Part shown: positions 2,964 to 60,571 of the stretch, piece by piece
Numbering within the stretch: position 1 is the stretch's first letter
Layout: each line of letters starts with the position of its first letter
Assembly (NCBI GenBank): GCA_025094145.1
Contig: JALLLS010000004.1
Span: 434,001-498,000 of the forward strand
Direction: 5' to 3'
Length of the DNA stretch: 64,000 bases
Origin: Spinellus fusiger
Lineage: Eukaryota; Mucoromycota; Mucoromycetes; Mucorales; Phycomycetaceae
Notes under the pieces: model-generated
The model's input: only the letters and a program-made list of their open reading frames with translations
Databases searched by the model: none
Told to the model about the DNA's origin: nothing
Program-made: the position numbers and the translations under genes

Positions 2964-4618
2964 ATGTCCACTGTACTCGATGAAGACGATATGCTTCGGT
3001 CAGGATTCCTCGATCCTGGAGCCTCAAAGTATCTTCTAGGCACCACCTCTTCTCTCAGTCGATCTATGACTTCTCCAATTTATACCAACCACTTTGCTGA
3101 GGACGCTAACCCATGGAAGACCACCAACTCCTTTGATCCTGTAGTAGACATACGCCAGGGCTTAGCCTCTCATGATGTAGCCACTGATAATATTCTAGGT
3201 GCTGAGGTAACAGCTGCCAGTGTATTAGGTGGGTAGGCTTAGCCATAGATAGTATTATTTTCTCTTCCAGCAGAGAAAAGAAGAAAACAGTGGACATTGA
3301 CCAGCAGCTAAACACACCCCACTGTCTAGTTGGCATTGATCTGCCCGAGATATACGATACAGCCTACATACGAGCAGGACCTATCGAAGACAGAGTCAGT
3401 TTAGAATCCCTTGGAAAAGTTGTTTCCTTGGCAAGTATTCCACCTCGTATAGCAGAAAAGGTATACAAAACAAAACAAAACAAAACAAAACAAAAAACAA
3501 CAACAGACGGCCTGTCTAAAGATGGCCCTCTCAAGTCAAGTTGTAACTGACAATCCAGTGGATCTACTTTAACAGATTCTTCATACTGTAGTTCCTGCAG
3601 GTGCCTTGTATGTTACGCGTAATGAGTTTAACACTGCACTTGCTCTTGTTGCTTGTGCACAGAAGAATATGGGTAAGTTGTGATGGAGTTATGCTGCTGT
3701 TAAGAAGATGCTATGAACTTATTGTCCTTTCTCTCTCTCTCTTTTAACAATGGCTTATTAGAAACCTCTTTACAGGAAGTCTACCAGCACCGTAACGGTA
3801 ATAACAATAATAACATCTATTCACATTCTTTTCCTTTTTTTTTTACATTTTACACTTCACCACGTGCCTAGCATAGAATATGGCAACTAACATCCACTCC
3901 ACCTGCCTCTGCATTGACATTAGACTTGCCTGTGCCTATGCTCCCCAAACTCAACCAATTCCACATCAAGCGAAGTAGCCGTCAGCCTATGGCAGGGTCT
4001 GCTACTCAGAGTCAGCCCATGGATGATCCCTGGAAACTCATGCTGACACCTCCCGGAGTGACGGAGAATGAACACACTGTATCCGACTCCATCCACCACC
4101 CATCTCACCACAGCAAGGACGGTATTTTATCAGACACACCCACCCATGTCCACACTGTACACGGACGCACTCAGAGCATGGGGGTTCTCTCTCCACCGCC
4201 CTCCCTCCACCACCACCACCCACACCAGCAGCACCCAAACACATACCCTACATCTCAAGGGAGAGTGGGTGATGTCAAATCTGCCTCCTTTGCCACCCAC
4301 GATGTAAAGCCTATAGCAGAATCCCTGCAGTGGTTTCAGGATTTGGATGTGATTCAATTAACAGTGGCCCCTGAAAAAGAAGGGTTTCTCTTTAAGCATT
4401 TTAACTATGTAGTAGAGAGTCAGCAGAGGAATTCAATTGTGTTGCGTCGCTATAGTGACTTTTATTGGCTTTGGGAGACACTGATGAAGCGGTATCCATT
4501 TAGGCTAATTCCTAATCTGCCGCCTAAGAAACTTGGAGGACGTAGGTCTGACGTGTAGGCTACACAAGTGAGATGGATAAGAGAGAGAAACTTATAGAGT
4601 GTATGTTTATTGTCTATG

Positions 4619-4649
<31 letters not shown>

Positions 4650-5930
4650 GTGTGTGTGTGTCTGTGTGTCTATCCATCTATCTACAGTGGACACCACTTT
4701 TGTAGAAAGACGTCGAAAAGGACTGAGTAGATTCCTTCATGCTATTGTGCGACATCCTACACTGAAAAAAGACAAGGTGGTAGAGACATTTCTGACAGAA
4801 CCCTCGGTAAATACAAATACTAGATGTACCTAAAGATAGAGAAAAAAGAAAGAAGAAAAGAAAACGGCTTGTTATCAACAAGAAAATCACTCATTGGAAA
4901 GAGAATGGTACTTAGGAATTATTGGCTTGGCGAAAAGCAAATCCTCCGGCTGTAGACGAAGAGTTTGTGTGTGTGGATTCAGACATCAATACCTTTGAGG
5001 CCTATATTCCTCATGATCTTGAAGAACGTCTTGGAAAACTCGAAGGTGTGCTTCCAAAAATGATTGAGCATTGCCACTCCATGTGTCTTTCCATGGATAA
5101 AATGGCACGACTGGAAGAAGCGCATGGTATGGAGTTCTTACGTTATAGTAAAACCCTCAAGTAAGTAGTAGACTATTGGCTAGAAATCTTGTCTTTGTCC
5201 GTCACTAACATGGCGAGGGGGGGAAAACAATAGTAAGATGAGTGAAATCGAAAGCAATTGCTACGTTCCTGATTGCCATGGCTGTGTGCAAATGGTGCGT
5301 GGGTATGATGCTGTAGCAAAACACATGCAAAAGGCGGGTTCTATTTTGGAAGAGCAGGCAGGTTCATCCTCTGATGGGATTCTAGAGGACCTTAAACAGC
5401 ACCGTGATATTCTTATTTCTTTCCAGGCAAGTCAATACCTTTTGTAATAGAAAAAGAAAAGACTAAAGACTAACACCATTGTATCTTATAGGATATGCTT
5501 CATCGTAAACCCAAGTTATCTGCAAACCAGATGGATAGTCTTGGTAAGAAACTGATAGCAAACCAGGCCAAAGTCAACCAGCACAGAGGTGTGCCTGGAT
5601 TAGAAGCAGAAGTAGAAAGACTCGACACAGCTATTAAAAATGTAAGTCAATAAGACAAAAGAAAAGGATGTCCTTATGCTTCCTCGATTCTCATTACAAT
5701 CTTTATGTTAGGACCGGGAACGAATGGCATGGCAGCAACGTCGGGATGTTCATATTCGCTACAGTATTTCTTGTGAACTATCTTTCCTTCACAAACAGCA
5801 TTCCTTTATGTCTCTTCTTTACCAAAACTACACCCACGAACAGTTACGGTTTACACGCATCTTAGTGGATAATTGGAAGGCACTGCAAGGACTGACATGT
5901 GACATACCTGAACCTGAGGATTTTGCCTAG
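2964..5930 (+). CDS. MVP1: Sorting nexin Mvp1/SNX8 (PX-BAR)
   Basis: Ten exons: 2964-3228 (or 3232), 3291 (or 3271)-3460, 3576-3672, 3762-3797, 3924-4541, 4688-4806, 4916-5160, 5234-5426, 5492-5641, 5712-5930; about 703 residues. The first intron has two equally in-frame solutions. The N-terminal part holds an EH-like segment (NEFNTALALVACAQKNM), then a variable linker, then the PX domain from about residue 330 (QLTVAPEKEGFLFKHFNYVV, RRYSDFYWLWE, YPFRLIPNLPPKKLGG). The C-terminal helical region corresponds to the BAR domain (AWRKANPP, HRDILISFQ, YNQ-like DNWKALQG end). The family binds PI3P on endosomes and sorts cargo to vacuole or retrograde routes. The intron at 5427-5491 begins with GC (CAG|GCAAGT), a non-canonical donor. 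A TCTA/TG microsatellite (about 4621-4664) sits in intron 5. Confidence 0.92.
4621..4684. repeat. TCTA and TG microsatellite in MVP1 intron
   Basis: Runs of TATC/TCTA followed by TG repeats lie just before the acceptor of exon 6 and form part of its pyrimidine-rich tract. Confidence 0.8.
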
Positions 5931-6859: not shown

Positions 6860-6869
6860 CTGACGGTTC

Positions 6870-7930
6870 TAAATGGGCTATTTCAGATTCTACTTGCCTA
6901 TTTTAGCAATAACTATTGACTCTGCAATTTAAAAGTATAGAATTGGCTGTAAAGAGAAGAAATAGAACAAGAATCGCCCCAATATTACAACTCAGTCACT
7001 GCATTTATTGTTTAACATAATATGTTATCCTTAAGCCCACAGTATTTGCAACATAACACTGCTTAAGAAAGATGTATTACAGAACTTATAAAGTTAACTC
7101 TAGTGGTCATTGTCCATAAAAATAGAACCAAAATCACTTACATTGAGAACAGTATAGACATTTATTGAATCAATATTTATAATCACCTCAACTGTCTCAT
7201 TGTAACTAGTATTAACAATGGTGCTTGATGATTACAAAGTATTGCTTCTAATACTGTCCTTTAGGTCCAAGGTAAATAGAGTGTGAATTGTTTGACTTGT
7301 GAGTTCTATGAGTGGAGGCTAGTGTATGCCTCACCAGTATAAAGAGGGAAATTATTTGTTTTGATAATCCCGTCCTTTTGTTATTTCTCACACTGCACAT
7401 ACAACTTAACGCCTAAGTACCCATCAAGATGAACATAAATAAACAAGGTAATGTGCCATTATTAACAAAGAGAAACAATAGAAAGAGGTGATGGACATCA
7501 CCAAGGACTATTCTAGTGATAAAAAGGTAAGCAGTGTCTTCATCTGGGCTTGAGCTCATTGTAATCCATAAGGCATAGTACTGACTCTTCTTCTAATAGA
7601 TGATATATGACTCATTATTCTCAAGACAAGTATTAAGTACAAGGTAAGCATACTATCTCTCTTATTGAATTATTACTAATACACTCTTCTGTTATTAGAT
7701 AAGTAAAGACTCTTTCTCAAGTCAGTCCAAAGTGGTCTTCTTCCTTCTATACTGTCTAAGGTGTCTAGGGTGTCTAGGGTATACTCCTAAGCATAGTTAT
7801 CTATCTCCCAAGGATAAAGCACAAGGCTTTTAGGGTGTATGTTCTGTTGCTATGAAGGAATACACCTAGAACAGCAGTGGCTATAGTAATAGTATGTTAT
7901 TAGCTACAGTATTATTAGCTATATTATTAC
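6870..7930 (+). repeat. Dispersed repeat, copy A
   Basis: This segment recurs at 26440-27077 (copy B, same strand, internally deleted) and at about 31790-33000 (copy C, reverse complement). All copies share a TATAAAGAG-like box region (A and C), then ATGARCATA...CAAG followed by GTARTG, and blocks that look like exons bounded by GTAAGCA donors and TTATTAG or CTAATAG acceptors (for example 7528 GTAAGC to 7600 region). In copies A, B and C the block after the first acceptor keeps an open frame of 15 codons with mostly conservative changes, but no continuous spliced protein could be built. It may be a transposon-borne gene or a non-coding transcript unit. Limits are approximate. Confidence 0.65.
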
Positions 7931-8500
7931 GATAAACAATTTTATTCATAAACAATATATTTTACTGATAATACAATCTGATACTGAGGTATCCACAAAA
8001 GGAAATAATAATCTAGATACTTGCAAACCTTTTGATTTTAAACACAGTTCCATAAAAGGGAACTTTATATTGGGACGTAAAAGGAAGTATATATCACCGC
8101 TTAAAGGTCAGAAAAATCTCCTGGTGTGTAGAGGGTCTATAGGGGTAGATATCATACTCATCGTTAAATTTACTACGCTTGATTCTATTTTTAACAGTTG
8201 CCCAGAATTGTTCAATAGTATTTAGTTCATAAGAGTAAGGAAAAAGATAGATACATTTTTACTCTCTACTGATAATCAAATGATCAATATCTTCGTGAGT
8301 ATGAACAGGCGCATTGTCCATGACGAGGTAAGCCCTGTTCAGTTCTAGAAATTTATCCAGCTGATTTAAAGTCCCCTTCAAAGACTCAAGGTAATGGTCA
8401 GTTCTTGCACTAATTTTCTTGGAGTTTGCTTTTATATTTGAAGCTTTTCTTTTGCGAGCCCCAACGACTTTTTTTTTATTTAAAAAATTGAGCAACTCTA
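7931..8500 (-). pseudogene. IS630/Tc1-type DDE transposase remnant
   Basis: Read on the minus strand, 8259-8495 gives a frame containing YLVMDNAPVHTHEDIDHLI, and after a stop the frame continues with YLFPYSYELNTIEQFWATV and KNRIKRSKF. The pairing of MDNAPVH (second catalytic Asp) with a PYSxELNxIEQFW motif (catalytic Glu) is the signature of IS630-like DDE transposases common in Mucorales genomes. The N-terminal half is absent and the frame is broken, so it is a decayed copy. Its 3' end (VFKIKRFASI then stop, near 8010-8040) is also present in repeat copy C at about 31650-31697, so repeat A and this remnant are parts of one mobile unit. Confidence 0.75.
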
Positions 8501-26439: not shown

Positions 26440-27077
26440 ACTATGGACTGTATAATTAAACACTATAAAGTTGGATAAAAGGAAGAAGCAAACCTGACAT
26501 TACAACTCAATCACTGCATTTAATGTTTAACATGTGCTATCCTTAAGCCCACAGTATAACAATTAAGCACTCTTCAAGATGAGCATAGCTGAGCAAGGTA
26601 GTGTGCCATTATTAACAAAGAGAAACAATAGAAGGAGGTGATAGACACTATCAAAGACTATTCTAGTGATAAAAAGGTAAGCAGTGTCTTCATCTGAGCT
26701 TGATCTTAGTTTAATCCACAAGACATAGTACTGACTCTTCTACTAATAGATGATATATCACTCATTATTCTCAAGACAATTATTAAGTACAAGGTAAGCA
26801 TATCATCCCTCTTGATTGAATTATTACTAATACACTCTTCTGTTATTAGATAAATAAAGACTCTTTCTCAAGTCAGTCTCGGGTGGTCTTTTTCCTTCTA
26901 TACTGTCTAAGGTGTCTAGGCTGTCTAGAGTATACTCCTGAGCATGGTTTTCTATCTCCCAAGAATAAAACACAATACTTTTAAGGTGTATATTCTATTG
27001 CTATGAAGGAATACACCTAGAACAGTAGTGGCTATAGTAATAGTATATTATTAGCTACAGTATTATTGGCTATATTA
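26440..27077 (+). repeat. Dispersed repeat, copy B
   Basis: Same family as 6870-7930. It lacks about 370 bp present in copy A between the AAGCCCACAGTAT block and the ATGAGCATA block, and is cut at its right end, at GGCTATATTA, by LINE copy 1. Confidence 0.7.
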
Positions 27078-28322
27078 CAGTTCAAAGTATTTTTATTTTT
27101 TGGGTGTGGTTTGCTATTCGCGTATTGGGCATATCAGCCACCCTATGAGAACTTTTGGAAAAATAAGAATAAACATATAAACACTTCAAATACAAAAGTG
27201 AAAAAATAATGCAAATGAATGGGAAACAGAAAGAAAAGAGAATATAAAACCTCGATGAGGGAAAAATAAGGAAAAAAACGAAAAAAATGATTGTAAATGA
27301 GAATTATGAATAGACATCCAAAAGGCCATAAAGTCAGCAAGGAAACCAGGACACCAAAAAGATAACCATCATCCTATGATAATCTGAAATCCAACGAGGG
27401 ATACTTAGAGCAACTCGGATAATCCTGAAAATAAATACAGCAACTACACTAGCAGCTTCTGGCTTTGCTAAACAAGTTGAGAAAGTGTGGCAGAGAAAAG
27501 ATTGGAGGAAGAGTTTGTCTGTTGAAGGATTCTTTGTACTCTGTGATGTTGTTGAAGCTAACACTCAATACGCTCACCATCAGCCTCAACGAGGAAGCTA
27601 CTCACTGATGCTTTCATTATAAAATCGAGTAGATATGGCTCAATTAGTCATTTGAAGCAAAACTAAGAAGAACAAGAACATGGAGCGTCTATGATCAACG
27701 AATGTGCAAGTAATAAGGTGGTCCCGGTTGGCAAATGAGTAGTCACATTAGCAAGGAACTAGTGTTGGTGATAGCCAAGCAATCCTCTATTTTAGTAGAC
27801 AATATCCTTCTTTATGTGTGCATAATAGTAGAGGAATTTGATCACACACAAGTCTGTGGGGTTCAGTGGCTGCTGCTACCAACATATTCTTACCACACAT
27901 TAGACTAGTCATTTCATTCTGGACGTTCAAGATAAGCTACTTTTAATTGATATTTAGAAAGATTGTGAATCTGTCCTATTCTTTGAGCATTTTGCCAGAG
28001 TACATTGCCGTGTAGCTTAATTCATCTGGACTCACTCTGGGATGATTCAAGCTGCGGGACAAGGCACCAAAGGAGGGTGTCTTCAGGAAGGGTAGCTGCA
28101 CGCTCAACAAATTTGGCTTGCAGATAAAGAAAACGAGAGTATATGTTAGGGAGGGCAGCTAATTGGGCAATCTGGATCGTTCCAAACCTAGCAGCAGCAG
28201 ATCTAGCGAGACAAATTCTCAGACAAGCAGACTGACAGATTTGTAGCGGGCGGATGCCTAGTCTATTGACATTACAAATAGCCAACCCATACTCAAGGAT
28301 AGGCCAAAGGTACAGAGAAAAC
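27078..28322 (-). mobile_element. Decayed LINE (non-LTR retrotransposon), copy 1
   Basis: The 3' end is at the left (CAGTTCAAAGTATTTTTA on the plus strand), identical to the ends of LINE copies 2 and 3. Minus-strand frames contain PILEYGLAICNVNRLGIRPL and RFLYLQAKFVERAATLPEDT, matching the reverse transcriptase C-terminal part of copy 2. The 5' end is truncated near 28322 and the frame is broken many times. It is inserted in repeat copy B. No target-site duplication was found at the 5' side. Confidence 0.75.
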
Positions 28323-31560: not shown

Positions 31561-33010
31561 GGTGAATCCGTTGATTAATACACACCAGGAGATTTTCTGG
31601 CCTTTAATCAGTAACACAATCATCCCTTTACGTCCATCCCAAATTTTGCCCTTATATGTAACTGTGTTTAAAATCAAAAGGTTTGCAAGTATCTAAATAA
31701 TTGTTTCCTTTTGTGGATACCTCAATATCAAATTGTATTATTAATAAAATATATTGTTTATGAATAAAATTGTTTATTATAATAATGTAGCTTATACTAT
31801 ATTATGACTATAGCTACTGTCGTAAGACTGCTTTCCAAAAATGGATGTTTCGTCATTTGTGTCCTTGAGCAACTAGAAAGGAAAATGACGAAAGGTAGTA
31901 GTGATGCGTGAGCAACACAGAATACTACAAAGCATTATGTCATTGACACTCTCGCAGCATATCAGCAAATGTATACCTGACATCATATCTTATAGTAGTA
32001 GAATAGTAAGAGAAAATAAGTATAAAAGAAGTGTACATTTGAATGAATAAAGAGCAGAGTTTAACCACACGTTAACTGGCCGGATTCCTTTGATATCTAA
32101 GATCAAAGACAACACTACTGCTTAAGTAGATTCCCTTCATAGCAATAGAATCCACACCCTAAAAGCTTTGTGCTTTATCCTTGGGAGATAGATAACTATG
32201 CTCAGGAGTATACCCTAGAGACCCTAGACAGTATAGAAGACCACCTAAGACTGACTTGAAAGGTGTCTTTATTTATTAACAATACAATGAATGTCTTGTG
32301 GATTACAATGAGCTCAAGCCCAGATGATGACACTGCTTACCTTTTTACTTTCATAATAGTCCTTGGTAGTGTCTATCACTTCCTTCTATTGTTTCTCTTT
32401 GTTAATAATAGCACATTACCTTGCTCAGCTATGCTCATCTTGATGAGTACCTAGATGTTAAGTTATATGTGCAGTGTGAGAAATAACAAAAGGACGGGAT
32501 TATCAAAAATAATTTCTCTCTTTATACTGGTGGGGTATACACTAGCCTCCACTCATAAAACTCATGCCAAATTCATGTCAAATTTACAAGTCAAACAATT
32601 CACACTCTATTTGCCTTGGGCCTAAAGTCCAGTATTAGAAACAATATCTTGTTATCATTAAGCACCACTGTTAATACCAGTTACAATAACATAGTTACTG
32701 AAGTGATTATGAATATTGAGTCAATAAATGAATACACTGTTCTTAATATAAGTAGACTTGGTTCTATTTTATGGACAATGACCACTAGAGTTAATTCAGT
32801 GTGTTCTACAATAAATATCTTTAAACATTGTTACGCTGCAAATACTATGGGCTTATAGTTAACACATTATGTTAAACAATAAATGCAGTGACTGAATTGT
32901 AATTTTGGGGTGATTCTTATACTATTTCTTGTCTTTACAGCCAATTCTATACTTTTAAATTGCAGAGTCAATAGCCATTGCTAAAATAGGTAAGTAGAGT
33001 TTGAAATTGA
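31561..33010 (-). repeat. Dispersed repeat, copy C, with transposase 3' end
   Basis: Reverse complement of 6870 to about 8130. It contains the same TATAAAGAGAG box, ATGAGCATAGCTGAGCAAG, and exon-like blocks, but a deletion removes one block. At 31590-31697 the plus strand carries the IS630-type transposase C-terminus ending VFKIKRFASI. An 80-codon plus frame at 32616-32858 is partly kept in copy A (NTSYN, VIxNIxSIN, YTVLNxS), with conservative changes. Confidence 0.65.
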
Positions 33011-33301
33011 CCATTTAGACAGCGAAAAGGCCTTTTAAAACCCCTTCGCCAATCATAAGAATATTGCAAATTTATTCTCAGTATATTTCCTTATATATCC
33101 CAAAAATCTCCTGCTGTGTAGATGTTCACTTGCTGCTCTTTTTCACAGTCCCCTTCTCTCAATGACACTACCTAAAACGGACTGCTTTATGTCGGAAAAT
33201 GAAAAAGACTACCATTTTCCACTTTTTTTTTTCTTTCCTGCGTGGCTTGTATGCTCCTGCACTTGTTCTCTTTTTTTTTCTTCTTTTTCTTTTTCTATAG
33301 C

Positions 33302-53593: not shown

Positions 53594-54961
53594 AAAATAG
53601 TCACATAGAAAATCTAAAATATTTTTTACATTCCGATATGATTCTTGTTTATGGAAATACTCATTCTTTGTCATAAAAACACACATTAAACACACAGTAG
53701 AGACTTGAAAATTGGATAAAGTATAAAGGTCATCAATATAATATATACAGATTTATTAGGTGGAAACCTTTAATATTTGGTGTTTTCACCCTTGGCCTCT
53801 ATCACAGCCCTACATCTCCAATGTATACTGGCAATGAGGCCATTTGTAGTATCTTTGGGGATTTTATCCCAATCTTGGATCAAGAGAGCCTTTAGATCCT
53901 GGAGAGTGCTTGATCGGATCATCTTCTTGCGGACTACTCTGTTCAACTCTTCCCAAAGATGCTCAATTGGGTTCAGGTCAGGGCTTTGAGAGGGCCACCC
54001 CTCCATAGTAGCAATCTTCCTCTCATCCTTCCATTTCCTAGTCTCCTTACTAGTATGGCAACTGGCATTGTCCTCTTGAAGAACATAGCCTACCACTAGA
54101 TTCAGTGCCGGAAGACAAGCCAGCTTGGGGCAATAGGCCGTTTCTAAAATACTGGTGTATCTGGCACTATTTATGGATCTCTCCACCATAACAAGTCTAC
54201 TAACACCTTCACCAGAGAAGAGAACACCACACCATCACCCCACCACCACCAAACTTTGTCGTTGGCTTTAAATTCTTTGGGAGAAGACCCTCCTTCTTTC
54301 TGGGCACTACTCTGGTACGGTTGCTGTTGCTCATCAACTGGTACTTTAACTTATCAGATCAGATGACCGCTTTCCAGTCTTCCTCAGTCTAATGGAAGTG
54401 GGCCTTAGCCTAAGCAAGCCTCAACTTCTTGTTTTTATTGTCAAGAGAAGGTTTCTTAATAACATTGTTAGAAGACAGACCAATCCTCTTTATCATTTTT
54501 TGGAATGTAGTCATGAACACTTGGGTGTCCATTCTCTGGTGAAGCTCCTTCATGCTCTGGAAGGAGTCCCTTGCCACCTCACGAGAAACCTCCCTCTCGT
54601 CTCTCTCCGTCAAGATAGGCTTGCGCCCAGAACCCTTTCCTGCTTTAAAATCGCCAGTTTCCCTGTACCTTTTCATGATGAGGCTGACAGCGGGCCGACT
54701 GATACTAAACATGGCTGCAATATCTGTTTGCCTGGTGCCATTTACTGTTGCTTCGTGAACAATGAGTTTACGAGTAAAATCATCAATGTTTTTCTTCTTG
54801 TTTCTAATAGGCTTGGTGGATTTTTCAGTGGTATTAGACATGATAGATTCTATAGCGGAAAAAAAAGAAATGAGGAATGAGTAAAAGAAAAAAAAGAATT
54901 ATTTTTGAGCAAAATAAAAGTCGGAAAATGGAAAAGATTATATGGTTTCCACCGGATACTG
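53594..54961 (-). mobile_element. Tc1/mariner element T1
   Basis: About 1.37 kb, same family and length as T2. The right end reads TTTCCACCGGATACTG, matching the T2 terminus; the left end is eroded (TAGTCACATAGAAAATCTAA). The flanking TA is not preserved on the right. Its 3' half is identical in protein to T2, its 5' half is clearly diverged. Confidence 0.8.
53770..54841 (-). pseudogene. Tc1-like transposase of T1, interrupted
   Basis: On the minus strand the paired helix-turn-helix part is open from 54841 (MSNTTEKSTKPIRNKKKNID, TDIAAMFSISRPAVSLIMKR) to a stop near 54410. Further stops and shifts follow before the open DDE end at 53770-54189 (LQEDNASCH, SQSPDLNPIEHLW). By count there are 35 residues between the second Asp and the Glu. 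Non-functional as read. Confidence 0.8.
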
Positions 54962-55142
54962 TGGTTTTTAAGACCTCCCCTGTTGGGCTCCAAAAAGTGT
55001 TTATGTCTATCCCATCTTTTTTTTTCTTCAAACGATCTCATAGGGTTAGTTCACTTTTAAAATTCCGGGATATTTTTATACCAAAAACAACAAACACTAT
55101 TTTTCTTTTTCTTTTTCTATAACACTACTATTTTTTTTTACA

Positions 55143-56175
55143 ATGTCTGAATCAACTAACATTAAAGACATCGCCAAAAAACCCGAGATGTATGGAAAAT
55201 ATACGCCACTAGAAACTCGTTCAGCCATCCTTCACCAGGTTCTGAACATGAACTCCACCATGGCCGAGACATCTCGCTTATTTAATGTGCCTGCTCCCAC
55301 TGTGAGAGACATTGTCAAGCACTTTAAGGAGACAGGCTTAGTGGTGCCTTCACCTAAAAGTGGTAGAAAGAGAAAACTAGATGAAAGAGCCCTTCGATGT
55401 TTGCGCAGGAATAATGTGAGTAATCCTCATCAAACCAAGGTAGCCATCAGGGCAAGCATGGCTATCAAGGTCTCAGAAAATACCCTGAGGAAGTACCTCA
55501 ATTAAGAGGAATTCTACTCATGTGGTCCATTGGTGAGGCCTTTTTTGACAAGCAAGCAAATGGAGGTAAGACTCCAGTGGGCCTGTGGGCCTGTGGGTAC
55601 ATCAACTAGACGCATGAGGAAGTCAAGGGTCGAAGCTCATAAGTTATGACAAGTGCCAAAATCATTAGTTAATATGGCATGGCCTTCAAGCTTGAGCGTG
55701 TCCTATAGACAAAGAGTTCTGAAGGTGGAGAGGCTATAGTATAGGAGTGCTTCAACAATAAAAGTTTCGAGAAATTGATTGTTGTAGCAGGCAAAAGAGA
55801 CTCTGACAAGTACATGAATGTATAGAAAGAAATAATAACATTGATAATCATTCAGCTATCATAAACACTGGTGTCAGTTACCACCAACAGTAGGACAATA
55901 CAAGACTACATTCAAGTAGAACAACTCAGCTGGAAGGCTGCAAGTAGTATAGTAATGACTCTTTACTAGCCTTCAAAAAAAACCAATCTTAGTCCAATGG
56001 AATCTCTGATAGACCCACTTCCAAAAGGCCACCAGAAAGAATAGGACATATTCCATCAAGTAAAATTTAGAGATTAGTGTGATGCTGGAGTGGAATAAAA
56101 TATCAAAAGAAGTGACAAATAACCTCGTTGCCAGTATGAGACAGAGATGCCAGACTATTATTGATACTAAAGACT
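55143..56175 (+). pseudogene. Decayed Tc1-like transposase T4
   Basis: The first 120 codons (55143-55505) are open and give an HTH region (TMAETSRLFNVPAPTVRDIV, KHFKETGLVVPSPKSGRKRK). Beyond that only fragments remain: RLQWA at about 55565, a PNLSPMESLI relic of SPDLNPIEHL at about 55990, and NNLVASMRQRCQTIIDTK at about 56120. It differs from T1/T2 in the HTH part. No terminal repeats were identified. Confidence 0.7.
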
Positions 56176-56482: not shown

Positions 56483-56496
56483 TCTGAAGCTAAATA
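56483..56496. repeat. 14-bp target-site duplication, outer copy (LINE copy 2)
   Basis: TCTGAAGCTAAATA directly abuts the LINE 3' terminus (CAGTTC) and recurs exactly at 58192-58205 at the LINE 5' border. Confidence 0.8.
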
Positions 56497-58191
56497 CAGT
56501 TCAAAGTATTTTTATTTTTGGGTGTTGGTTGCTATTCGCGCATTGGGCATTTTAGCCACCCTATGAGATCGTTTGAAAAAAAAAGAATAAACATTGAAAC
56601 ACTTCAAATACATAAGTGAAAAAAATAATGCAAAGAGAGAAGAGACGGAAAGAAAAGAGAATATAAAACCTCAACGAGGGAAAAATGATGGAAAATGAGA
56701 AATGATGGTAAAATGAGAATTATGAATAGACATCCAAAAGGCCATAAAGTCAGCAAGGAAACCAGGATACCAAAAAGATAACCGTCATCCTGTGGCGATT
56801 CGAAATCCAACGAGGGATACTTAGAGCAACTCGGACAATCCTGAGGACACAAATATAGCAACTACACTAGCAGCTTCTGGCTTTGCTAAACGGGTTAAGA
56901 ATGGGTGGTAGAGGAGAGATCGGAGGAGAAGTGAGGATACAGCGTCTGTTGCTGCAGGAGTCTTTGCATTCTATGGCGGCGTTGGCGTTCCCGCTCAACA
57001 CACCCATCAGCAGCCTCAATGAGCAAGCTACCAGCTGATGGCTCTACCTTAAAGTCTCGAGTAGACGTGGCTCGATCAATGGCTTGCAGCAGTATTAACA
57101 AACTGGGCTAAAGATCTCGCCATTTAACAAAAGACTTAACCGTGCGCGGCAGAAGATTTAGACAATAGTCAATTGGATGAACGTCTTGTGGTGGTGCAGG
57201 AACCAAGAAGAACAAGAACGTAGAGCGTTCATGGTCAACGAATGTGCAAGTGAGAAAGTGGTCCCGATTGGCAGATGGGTGGCCACATTGGCAAGGAACT
57301 GAAGGTGTTGGTGGTAACCAAGCAATCCTCCATTCTAGTAGACGATATCTTTCTTTGCGCGTGCACGGTAGTAGAAGAATTGGATCCCAAACAGGTCTAC
57401 ATAGTCCATGGGCTACCGTCACCAGCGGATTCTTGCCACGTACTAGACTAGTCATTTCACTTTGAAGACGTTCAAGATAGGCTACTTTTAATGGATGTTT
57501 AGGAGGGTTGTGAGCCCGTCCTATTCTTTGAGCATTTTGCCAGAGTACATTGTCACGTAGCTTAATCCATCTGGCTTTACTCTGGGGTGCTTCAAGCTGC
57601 GGGACAAGGCACCAGAGGAGGGTGTCTTCAGGAAGGGTAGCTGCGCGCTCAACAAATTTGGCTTGCAGATAAAGAAAACGAGAGTATATGTTAGGGAGGG
57701 CAGCTAATTGGGCAACCTGGATCGTTCCAAACCTAGCAGTAGCAGATCTAGCAAGACAAAGTCTCAGACAAGCAGACTGACAGATTTGTAGCGGGCGGAT
57801 GCCTAGTCTATTGACATTACAAATAGCCAACCCATACTCAAGAATAGGCCGAACAAAAACAGTATACGCTCTTAGGGCTGCTGTAATCCCAAAGCCATAC
57901 ATGTTTACACCCATTCCTCTCAGCTTTTGCATTACTGCAATTGCCTTGACTTGTGAGTGTGAGAAAAGTGCGTCTTGGTTAATACCTTGACGTGAAAAGG
58001 GGATACCAAGGTACTTGAAAGTATCACAGGTTGGAAGCTCGTTGCCATAGAGGTAAAACGGCACATTGGCCGGGGCATTGAGTACTTCACATTTGGAGGG
58101 ACTCCATTTGTAACCAAGGAGGGTCGAGTGAATTTCGGCAAGTGCCAGCATTCGATGTATATCTTCTGGGCAGCCCATAAGAGCCACATCA
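56497..58191 (-). mobile_element. 5'-truncated LINE, copy 2
   Basis: Minus-oriented non-LTR retrotransposon of 1695 bp. Its 5' end is cut inside the reverse transcriptase catalytic motif (…DDVALMG is the first LINE-derived peptide). The frame 57108-58191 runs through the RT thumb region (PILEYGLAICNVNRLGIRPL, LYLQAKFVERAATLPEDTLL) to a C-terminal zinc-knuckle-like CQCGHPSANRDHFLTC. Exact 14-bp target-site duplications flank it. It is nearly intact over the part present, so the insertion is recent. Confidence 0.85.
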
Positions 58192-58205
58192 TCTGAAGCT
58201 AAATA
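58192..58205. repeat. 14-bp target-site duplication, inner copy, abutting T2
   Basis: Same TCTGAAGCTAAATA as 56483-56496; its last two bases are the TA that borders element T2. Confidence 0.8.
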
Positions 58206-59570
58206 CAGTGTCACATCGAAAATCTAAAATATTTTTCATTTTCCGACTCTAATTTTGCTAAAAAAGAAAATCTTTTTTTTTACACATTCCTCATTTCTTT
58301 TTTTCCGCTATCATATTTATCATGTCTAACACCACCGAACAAACCATCAGACCTTTTGGAAACAGAAAGAAAAATATCAACAACTTTACTTCTAAACTCA
58401 TTGTACACGAGGCCACTCAACATGGCACCAGCCAAGTGGAGATTGCAGCCATGTTTGGCATCAGTCATTCCACTGTCAGCCTTATCGTGAAGAAGTACAG
58501 AGAAACTGGCTGTTTCAAAGCAGGGAAGAGCTCTGGGCGCAAGTCTGTTCTGACTTAGAATGACGAGAAAGAGTTTGTATACGAGATGGAAAGGGATTCA
58601 TTTCAGACAATAGATCAACTTTGCAAGCAGATGACCACCAAAGTGTGCATGAGCACTTTTAGAGAAATGATGAAGAATCTTGGCCTTTCTTCTTTCAGGA
58701 TGGTTAAGAAACCTTCTCTCAGCATTAAAAACAAGAAGTTGAGGCTTACTTGGACTAGGACCTACCTTCATTGAACAGATGAAGACTGGATGACAGTCAT
58801 CTGGTCCGATGAGTCCAAGTACCAGCTAATGAGCAACAACCACTGCAATAGAGTAGTGCGCAAGAAGAAGGAGGGGCTTCTCCCAAAGAATTTGAAGCCT
58901 ACCATGAAGTTTGGTGGTGTTGAGGTGATGGTGTGGTGTTCTCTTCTCTGGTGAAGGTGTTAGTAGACTTGTTATGGTGGAGAGATCCATAAATAGTGCC
59001 AGATACACCAGTATTTTAGAAACGGCCTATTGCCCCAAGCTGGCTTGTCTTCCGGCACTGAATCTAGTGGTAGGCTATGTTCTTCAAGAGGACAATGCCA
59101 GTTGCCATACTAGTAAGGAGACTAGGAAATGGAAGGATGAGAGGAAGATTGCTACTATGGAGGGGTGGCCCTCTCAAAGCCCTGACCTGAACCCAATTGA
59201 GCATCTTTGGGAAGAGTTGAACAGAGTAGTCCGCAAGAAGATGATCCGATCAAGCACTCTCCAGGATCTAAAGGCTCTCTTGATCCAAGATTGGGATAAA
59301 ATCCCCAAAGATACTACAAATGGCCTCATTGCCAGTATACATTGGAGATGTAGGGCTGTGATAGAGGCCAAGGGTGAAAACACCAAATATTAAAGGTTTC
59401 TACCCAATAAATTTGAGTATAATATCCTGTCGACCTTCTTTATACTTCATCCAATTTTCAAGTTTCTATTGTGTGTTTAATGTGTGTTTTTATTAAAAGT
59501 AATAAGTATTTCCCCAAACAAGAATCCTATCGGAAAATGAAAACATTGATATGTTTTCCACCGGACACTG
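58206..59570 (+). mobile_element. Tc1/mariner element T2
   Basis: 1365 bp with ends CAGTGTC...GACACTG and TA on both sides (58204-58205 and 59571-59572), the Tc1/mariner target duplication. The inner parts of the terminal repeats share ATTTTTCATTTTCCGA-like sequence. Carries one interrupted transposase gene. LINE target duplications abut both ends. Confidence 0.9.
58322..59393 (+). pseudogene. Tc1-like transposase of T2, interrupted
   Basis: Starts MSNTTEQTIRPFGNRKKNIN with an HTH segment (VEIAAMFGISHSTVSLIVKK). An in-frame TAG follows at about 58556, then WSDESKYQL (first catalytic Asp region), a frame break near 58920, and the open end at 58974-59393 with LQEDNASCH and SQSPDLNPIEHLW. Not functional as read. 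The last 139 codons equal those of T1. Confidence 0.85.
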
Positions 59571-59582
59571 TATTGTAATATG
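59571..59582. repeat. 12-bp target-site duplication, inner copy, abutting T2
   Basis: TATTGTAATATG; begins with the TA bordering T2 and recurs with one change at 60560-60571. Confidence 0.75.
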
Positions 59583-60559
59583 AACGTCTTCAAAGTGAAA
59601 TTGCTAGTCTAGTGCGTGGCAAGAATCCGCTGGTGACGGTAGCCCATGGACTATGTAGACCTGTTTGGGATCCAATTCTTTTACTAAAATGCACGCGCAA
59701 AGAGATACATCGTCTACTAGAATGGAGGATTGCTTGGTTACCACCAACACCTTCAGTTCCTTGCCAATGTGGCCACCCATCTGCCAATCGGGACCACTTT
59801 CTCACTTGCACATTCGTTGACCATGAACGCTCTACGTTCTTGTTCTTCCTAGTTCCTGCCCCACCACAATACGTTCATCCAATTGACTATTGTCTAAATC
59901 TTCTGTCGCGCACGGTTAAGTCTTTTGTTAAATGGCGAGATCTCTGGCCCAATTTTTTAATACTGATACAAGCCATTGATCGAGCCACGTATACTCGAGG
60001 CTTTAAGGTAGAGCCATCAGCTGGTAGCTTGCTCATTGAGGCTGCTGATGGGTGTGTTGAGCGGGAACGCCAGCGCCGCCATAGAGTGCAAAGACTCCTT
60101 CAGCAACAGACGCAGTATCTTCACTTCTCCTCCGATCTCTCCTCTACCACCCATTCTTAACCCGTTTAGCAAAGCCAGAAGCTGCTATTGTAGTTGCTGT
60201 ATTTGTGTCCTCAGGATTGTCCGAGTTGCTCTAAGTATCCCTCGTTGGATTTCGAATCACCGCAGGATGACGCTTATCTTTTTGGTGTCCTGGTTTCCAT
60301 GCTGGCTTTATGGCCTTTTAGATGTCTATTCATAATTCTCATTTTACCATCATTTCTCATTTTCCATCATTTTTCCCTCGTTGAGGTTTTATATTCTCTT
60401 TTCTTTCCGTCTCTTCTCTCTTTGCATTATTTTTTTCACTTATGTATTTGAAGTGTTTCAATGTTTGTTCTTTTTTTTTCAAACGATCTCACAGGGTGGC
60501 TAATATGCCCAATGCGCGAATAGCAACCAACATGCAAAAATAAAAAATACTTTGAACTG
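59583..60559 (+). mobile_element. 5'-truncated LINE, copy 3
   Basis: 977 bp, plus orientation, the same 3' part as copy 2 (57474 down to 56497) at an estimated 95% or more identity. It contains RGKNPLVTVAHGLCRPVWDP and the CQCGHPSANRDHFLTC motif in the frame 59612-60160. The 3' terminus is TTTGAACTG. It is flanked by 12-bp duplications (59571-59582 and 60560-60571). Confidence 0.85.
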
Positions 60560-60571
60560 TATTGTGATATG
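60560..60571. repeat. 12-bp target-site duplication, outer copy (LINE copy 3)
   Basis: TATTGTGATATG next to the LINE 3' end; one mismatch to 59571-59582. Confidence 0.75.

What the first reader, a model, noticed from the sequence alone, without database searches (positions are those of the whole stretch)
56483..60571. Two LINE copies inserted exactly at both ends of one Tc1 element, in opposite orientation
Tc1 element T2 (58206-59570) is bordered by TA. Directly outside its left TA lies LINE copy 2 (minus) with a 14-bp target duplication TCTGAAGCTAAATA whose inner copy ends in T2's own TA. Directly outside its right TA lies LINE copy 3 (plus) with a 12-bp duplication TATTGTRATATG that begins with T2's right TA. 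So both LINE insertions used the junction TA^CAG at the two inverted Tc1 termini as the priming nick. The LINE 3' end (…GAACTG|TA) also mimics the Tc1 end (…ACACTG|TA). LINE copy 1 ends at TTA^CAG too. Inference: this LINE family targets Tc1 TIR/flank junctions, or uses nicks made there by Tc1 transposase, a form of mobile-element parasitism on another element.
Basis: partly seen in the sequence, partly recalled or inferred. Interest (0 to 1): 0.78.

Follow-up and report, generated by a model that had tools for sequence, protein, structure and literature searches.

The report
LINE retrotransposon that targets Tc1 ends
In this probably fungal genome a jumping element of one kind (a LINE) inserts again and again at the exact outer edge of another, unrelated kind (Tc1-like DNA transposons), and in the window it has done so at both ends of the same Tc1.

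Summary
Of the 69 exact copies of the LINE 5' end in the 38-Mb genome, 53 have Tc1-type transposase sequence within 0.9 kb upstream, 7 start on another LINE's 3' end and 9 show neither. At 33 sites where both duplicate copies were read, the Tc1-side copy always starts with TA, mostly after CACTG. The heptamer is not enough: 2 of 20 sampled CACTGTA sites, and 2 of 18 in the window, are Tc1 ends, against 44 of 47 LINE-used ACTG|TA sites (p = 2e-11 against the 20). In seven other copies of this Tc1 family, 7 of 14 ends carry a LINE. The last base of the LINE end tends to follow the target (5 of 8 against 0 of 25), the third-from-last does not (0 of 4), so reverse transcription seems to prime 1-2 bases inside the Tc1 end, close to where Tc1 transposases cut that strand. 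Whether the LINE's own nuclease or a transposase makes the nick is open. It is an APE-type LINE with a target class new to me; Tx1L in Xenopus is a recalled parallel.

The parts
58206..59570 (+). Tc1-like element T2 (transposase frame broken by stops; HTH and DDE_3 domains), flanked by TA at 58204-58205 and 59571-59572
   Evidence: sequence; DDE_3 E=6e-12, HTH_28 E=5e-7 on pieces; best other copies 90% identical; only 40 of 543 candidates scored
56497..58191 (-). LINE copy 2, 5'-truncated (matches LINE nt 3509-5212, 95%), 3' end pointing away from T2
58192..58205 (.). inner copy of LINE 2 target duplication TCTGAAGCTAAATA, ends in T2's left TA
56483..56496 (.). outer copy of LINE 2 target duplication
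59583..60559 (+). LINE copy 3, 5'-truncated (matches LINE nt 4228-5212, 91%), 3' end pointing away from T2
59571..59582 (.). inner copy of LINE 3 target duplication TATTGTAATATG, begins with T2's right TA
60560..60571 (.). outer copy of LINE 3 target duplication TATTGTGATATG (one mismatch)
57108..58214 (-). open frame with the ORF2 C-terminal half (RT motif reading ASDDVAL, CCHC-like knuckle, motifs named from memory); its first codons lie in the duplication and the Tc1 end
   Evidence: no Pfam hit for this part at E 0.001
27078..28308 (-). LINE copy 1; ends GAACTG|TA but no duplication and no Tc1 found beside it

Best explanation
A 5.2-kb APE-type LINE (ORF1; ORF2 with endonuclease and reverse transcriptase), present as roughly 900 3' ends, inserts preferentially at the boundary between the end of a Tc1-like transposon and its flanking TA. 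Shown from sequence: the element lies outside the Tc1, 3' end outward, flanked by an 8-16 bp (mode 12) duplication whose Tc1-side copy starts with the TA. Supported by comparison: the first-strand primer carries the flank, TA and one or two bases of the Tc1 end. Inferred: the LINE's own ribonucleoprotein recognises the Tc1 terminus (CTG|TA plus further subterminal features) and its APE domain nicks at TAC(A)^; the other strand is cut about 12 bp out in the flank.
For: 3' end pattern with up to one mismatch: 948 matches, 53 for the reversed control. 53 of 69 exact 5' ends have ACTGTA 5-20 bp upstream, reversed control 0. Full census of the 69: 53 Tc1 / 7 LINE 3' end / 9 neither; two pairs look like the same place duplicated (L043=L053, L062=L160). 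ACTG|TA targets that are not LINE ends: 44 of 47 Tc1, against 2 of 20 sampled CACTGTA sites, Fisher p = 2.4e-11; against 4 of 38 with the window's sites added, p = 7e-16. None of the window's 16 non-Tc1 CACTGTA sites has a LINE start within 40 bp; both Tc1 ones have. 33 duplicate-verified sites: Tc1-side copy starts with TA in 33 of 33. At -1, LINE ends that are not G have a non-G target in 5 of 8, LINE ends with G in 0 of 25, p = 2.4e-4; at -3 the LINE follows a deviating target in 0 of 4; at -4 in 1 of 5. T3-like (L057) and P0121-like (L048) transposases are hit besides the T1/T2 kind; T3 is 26-27% identical to T1/T2. PF03372 E=1e-6 and PF00078 E=8e-16 in ORF2 pieces. 9 of 69 insertions without detectable Tc1 argue that the LINE can nick by itself.
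Against: A CACTGTA motif alone does not explain the preference and I did not identify the extra determinant. The priming point coincides with the transposase cut on that strand, which the rival predicts. Three of 8 non-G LINE ends do not match their target (L128, L129, L131); L058 follows its target at -4; L124 rests on a duplicate with a mismatch. 7 of the 33 sites come from loci picked because their LINE end was not G. Of 40 evaluable 3' ends, 18 had no duplication scoring 8, though 9 of these have transposase upstream. The census scores transposase nearby; that the LINE abuts the terminus was read from the printed flanks.
Confidence: 0.6

Rival explanations
1. Nick parasitism: Tc1 transposase nicks the non-transferred strand 2-3 bases inside the Tc1 end, and the LINE reverse transcriptase uses that 3'-OH (flank-TACA) as primer.
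For: Priming point 1-2 bases inside the end against a transposase cut 'two to three nucleotides inside' at the 5' ends (PMC2170065, passages); Tc1 ends with different last letters (CACTG, CATTG, CACTA, GCTG) are hit at the exact end, and more than one transposase lineage; bare CACTGTA sites are avoided.
Against: 9 of 69 insertions without detectable Tc1, one (L058) with a normal 13-bp duplication; L125, with no transposase hit in 973 bp, shows the same priming pattern; the LINE carries its own APE domain. LINE-on-LINE stacks (7 of 69) do not decide, because re-use of the Tc1 end gives the same structure.
Confidence: 0.3
2. Reverse order: Tc1 elements insert into the TA that begins existing LINE duplications.
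For: At one side only, the final structure would look the same (inference).
Against: The last LINE base tends to follow the adjoining Tc1-side base (5 of 8 against 0 of 25), so the Tc1 was probably there first; 53 of 69 LINEs would need a later Tc1 at one precise TA; both ends of one Tc1 carry separate LINEs with separate duplications (LINEs at both ends also in L002 and L006).
Confidence: 0.03
3. Composite or assembly artefact: LINE-Tc1-LINE units copied as a block, or misassembly.
For: Two pairs of places share the same upstream flank (L043=L053, L062=L160).
Against: Flanks and duplications differ from site to site (33 sites), and LINE truncation points and Tc1 families differ.
Confidence: 0.02

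Closest known systems
Tx1L of Xenopus in the DNA transposon Tx1D (recalled; the listings gave no account of its target)
   Same: As recalled: non-LTR element whose target is a DNA transposon
   Different: As recalled, Tx1L sits at one site inside one transposon family; here the target is the outer edge of several Tc1-like families, leaving them whole
Sequence-specific non-LTR elements R1, R2 and relatives in rRNA and small-RNA genes (PMC3706591, passages)
   Same: Repeated target; fixed junction
   Different: Target is a mobile element end, not a host multicopy gene; a minority of insertions lie elsewhere
TRE5-A of Dictyostelium (PMC3706591, passages)
   Same: A non-LTR element with preferred neighbourhood, possibly through target-bound protein
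   Different: TRE5-A inserts at a distance from its target; here the position is exact to the base
Mucorales LINE proteins (P0002 Lichtheimia, P0102 Rhizopus delemar)
   Same: Related reverse transcriptases from named organisms: 38% over the whole query (P0002), 34% over 72% (P0102); the best hit, P0001 (50%), is unnamed
   Different: Their insertion sites are not readable here; P0102, a Tc1-RT fused ORF, hints at the same habit

Membership tests
APE-type non-LTR retrotransposon (LINE) | ORF2 with APE endonuclease and reverse transcriptase | tested here: met
   PF03372 E=9.9e-7 and PF00078 E=7.7e-16 on pieces of one 5.2-kb copy
APE-type non-LTR retrotransposon (LINE) | constant 3' end, variable 5' truncation, target duplications | tested here: met
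   duplication found at 22 of 40 evaluable 3' ends
Site-specific LINE | insertions at one defined kind of site | tested here: met
   53 of 69 at Tc1 ends, 7 on LINE ends; 9 of 69 elsewhere, so a strong preference rather than strict specificity
Tx1 group | RT phylogeny within Tx1/L1 | not tested
   no tree built; nearest solved RTs by sequence are R2 proteins at weak E (4.7e-5)
Tc1/mariner (the target) | Tc1-like transposase, inverted ends, TA duplication | tested here: met
   T2: DDE_3 and HTH domains, TA on both sides, inverted ends (short reverse matches of the first and last 41 bases in other copies); TIR pair in the C12 copy

The most novel reading that the evidence does not exclude
The LINE does not choose the site itself: it parasitises a nick of Tc1 transposition, priming reverse transcription from the non-transferred strand that diverse Tc1 transposases leave open, so a retrotransposon feeds on the catalytic act of unrelated DNA transposons.
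Probability: 0.3. Interest if true: 0.92.

Novelty: new variant of a known kind. Interest (0 to 1): 0.77.

Why it matters
Site-specific LINEs are known from host multicopy genes, microsatellites and telomeric repeats (PMC3706591, passages). A family that uses the edges of another mobile element as its landing place, across more than one Tc1 lineage and at half the sampled ends of one family, shows how one class of transposon can set the landing pattern of another. The exact priming position makes it testable whether a LINE can use a transposase nick, and the natural target tolerance could inform work on target-primed insertion.

Tried and rejected
Motif-only targeting (any CACTGTA): rejected by the controls. 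LINE 3' end fully encoded by the LINE: rejected for many copies at the last base, kept at the third-from-last. Self-targeting of LINE ends as proof of sequence recognition: dropped, because repeated use of the same Tc1 end gives the same nested duplications (L018/L019). Pattern ACTGTAN{8,20}AACTGTA was uninformative (71 matches, 67 for the control). Pos -2 variants: only 2 places; L137 has a duplicate-like match behind CACTG (its LINE end reads ACAG) but not at the LINE boundary found, so it was not used. L134 looked concordant, but its match is not at the LINE boundary and it was dropped. Rows dropped: of 49 loci, 6 LINEs ran off the locus and 3 gave no chain. Of the 20 stretches fetched for 3' ends, 5 gave no usable 3' end (L085, L087, L089, L090, L091); L098, L095 and L093 gave a 3' flank that does not match the 5' copy (L093 explained by the inversion). 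Paper searches returned no description of a LINE targeting Tc1 ends in their listings; the library lacks most subscription papers. Opened, as passages only: PMC3706591, PMC2170065, PMC7928374, PMC5014426, PMC6895275.

Full report
What is there. The window lies in a 38-Mb genome of 197 contigs. Most named hits of the LINE reverse transcriptase are from Mucorales fungi, so the host is probably a Mucoromycota fungus; it is not named. T2 has DDE_3 and HTH domains in broken frames.

The LINE. One copy (L013) is 5212 bp with ORF1 (398 aa open frame), an APE endonuclease (PF03372) and a reverse transcriptase (PF00078) on pieces of a broken ORF2. The 3' end ATACTTTGAACTG is followed by TA in 26 of the first 30 copies listed. 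With up to one mismatch it occurs 948 times, 53 for the reversed control.

Genome-wide targeting. The LINE 5' end occurs 107 times with up to 2 mismatches, 69 times exactly. ACTGTA lies 5-20 bp upstream in 53 of these 69; reversed control 0. I fetched or already held the upstream flank of all 69 (and earlier loci; 0.7-0.9 kb, about 0.3 kb for L163). By tblastn with a small panel of Tc1 transposases, 53 of 69 have a hit, 7 of 69 begin directly after another LINE's 3' end (one of them, L071, with transposase further up), and 9 of 69 show neither. Two pairs (L043=L053, L062=L160) share the same flank, so about 67 are independent. Of 32 flanks with transposase among the first 40 (L071 included), the LINE is at the transposase-5' end in 21 and at the 3' end in 11.

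Control for the motif. CACTGTA occurs 9558 times, its reversal 4888. Of 20 places (every fifth of the 100 listed, first 0.87 Mb of contig C1, plus strand), 2 are Tc1 ends; one of these, L104, has LINE sequence close downstream, and another control site, L117, shares 12 letters with the LINE, which chance can give. In the window, 2 of 18 are Tc1 ends, both T2's, both with a LINE start within 12 bp; none of the other 16 has one within 40 bp. Among LINE-used ACTG|TA sites that are not LINE ends, 44 of 47 have Tc1 upstream; p = 2.4e-11 against the 20, 7e-16 against all 38. The C1 sample is one contig and small; the excess of CACTGTA over its reversal suggests a Tc1 share of up to about half, and the preference would still be clear. 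Saturation: in the seven further T2-family copies that brought as loci, 7 of 14 ends have an outward LINE starting within 20 bp.

Second sample, from 3' ends (L009 and L013 are in both samples). Of 49 LINE 3' ends (30 taken as listed, 3 of the window, 16 chosen for unusual last bases), 40 could be evaluated and 22 have a duplication scoring at least 8 at the LINE boundary, where permuted pairs reach 8 in 0.4%. All 15 of these from the unselected 33 follow CACTG, ATACTG or CATTG; 10 of the 13 outside the window have transposase upstream, the other three being L025 (180 bp held), L029 and L030. Over all 22, 15 have transposase upstream. The 18 without duplication include loci where the LINE still abuts a Tc1-like end, for example L017 and L126. 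One case is explained: on contig C12 a Tc1 of 1364 bp stands between two LINEs whose inner duplications are swapped (TACTTGTTGGA and TACATTGATGTC), the mark of an inversion between inverted LINE copies.

Priming position. In 33 duplicate-verified sites (22, and 11 aligned) the Tc1-side copy starts with TA in all; the outer copy of L023 starts with TT. At the last base before the TA, the 8 LINE ends that are not G have a non-G target in 5 (L054, L123, L124, L125, L133: same letter each time) and a G target in 3; the 25 LINE ends with G all have a G target (p = 2.4e-4). Seven of the 33 come from loci picked for a non-G end; L054 does not. At the third-from-last base four targets have T and the LINE keeps C in all four; at the fourth, five targets differ from A and the LINE follows once (L058). 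So the primer seems to carry one, perhaps two, bases of the target end. Tc1-family transposases cut this strand two to three bases inside (PMC2170065, passages). This also explains part of the likeness between LINE and Tc1 ends.

Mechanism. I favour recognition by the LINE's own machinery (0.6) over transposase nick parasitism (0.3). For the first: insertions without detectable Tc1 exist, one with a 13-bp duplication in a stretch with a weak HAD-hydrolase match, E about 3e-4 and below Pfam's cut-offs (L058), and L125, without transposase in 973 bp, primes in the same place. My panel is small, so some of the nine may be diverged or deleted Tc1s. For the second: the match to the transposase cut, ends hit whatever their last letters, and the avoidance of bare CACTGTA. 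Nothing here separates them finally.

Other species. P0102 of Rhizopus delemar is one predicted protein with a Tc1 DDE_3 domain followed by a LINE reverse transcriptase. Between them, at about residue 180, it reads KATVKF; the codons of A-T-V could be GCC-ACT-GTA, i.e. a Tc1 end plus TA. This is inference from protein letters, one case, and the only one of the 9 hits with both domains. Tc1/mariner elements are reported as the largest group of transposable elements in Mucorales genomes (PMC7928374, passages).

Comparison. The element is a LINE by the features tested. As a site-specific LINE its site class is new to me: the outer edge of Tc1-like elements. Tx1L is the parallel I recall, not verified here. 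Ten paper searches gave no account of such a LINE in their listings, in a library that lacks most subscription papers.

Noticed in passing
L009, L018, L028, L033: A 1.5-kb derivative keeps the LINE 5' end, the ORF1 region and about the last 220 bp but lacks ORF2 (LINE nt 1266 joined to 4967-5011 in the four copies): an ORF1-only non-autonomous family, like mammalian HAL1 (recalled). Its 5' ends are among the 69 of the census.
   Followed up: partly
G000 contig C12:38338-45417 (L093, L061, L126): LINE-Tc1-LINE unit with swapped inner duplications, as if the Tc1 was inverted by recombination between the two LINEs.
   Followed up: yes
L022/L164 (C1:980888-980977): A 90-bp foldback made of a LINE tail preceded by an inverted copy of its own last 25 or so bases, with TA on both sides; looks like a tiny TIR element.
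   Followed up: partly
L018/L019/L139 (C1:967301-974061): Two LINEs stacked head to tail at one Tc1 end with three copies of TATAAAAAAAGC.
   Followed up: partly
P0102 (Rhizopus delemar): Predicted ORF fusing Tc1 DDE_3 with a LINE reverse transcriptase; the cluster stands for 5 sequences on 5 contigs.
   Followed up: partly
window 53600-54967 and 55140-55900: Two further Tc1-like elements: T1, 78% (first frame) to 89% (C-terminal frame) protein identity to T2, and T3, 26-27% identity to T1/T2.
   Followed up: partly
window 54995-55046: A 54-column scrap of the LINE tail (LINE nt 5105-5151, 81%) some 30 bp beyond the right end of T1, without a LINE 3' end; possibly the remnant of another insertion at a Tc1 end.
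   Followed up: no
window 6868-8060, 26557-27077, 31649-33019: An interspersed repeat, 82-92% between copies, not identified.
   Followed up: no
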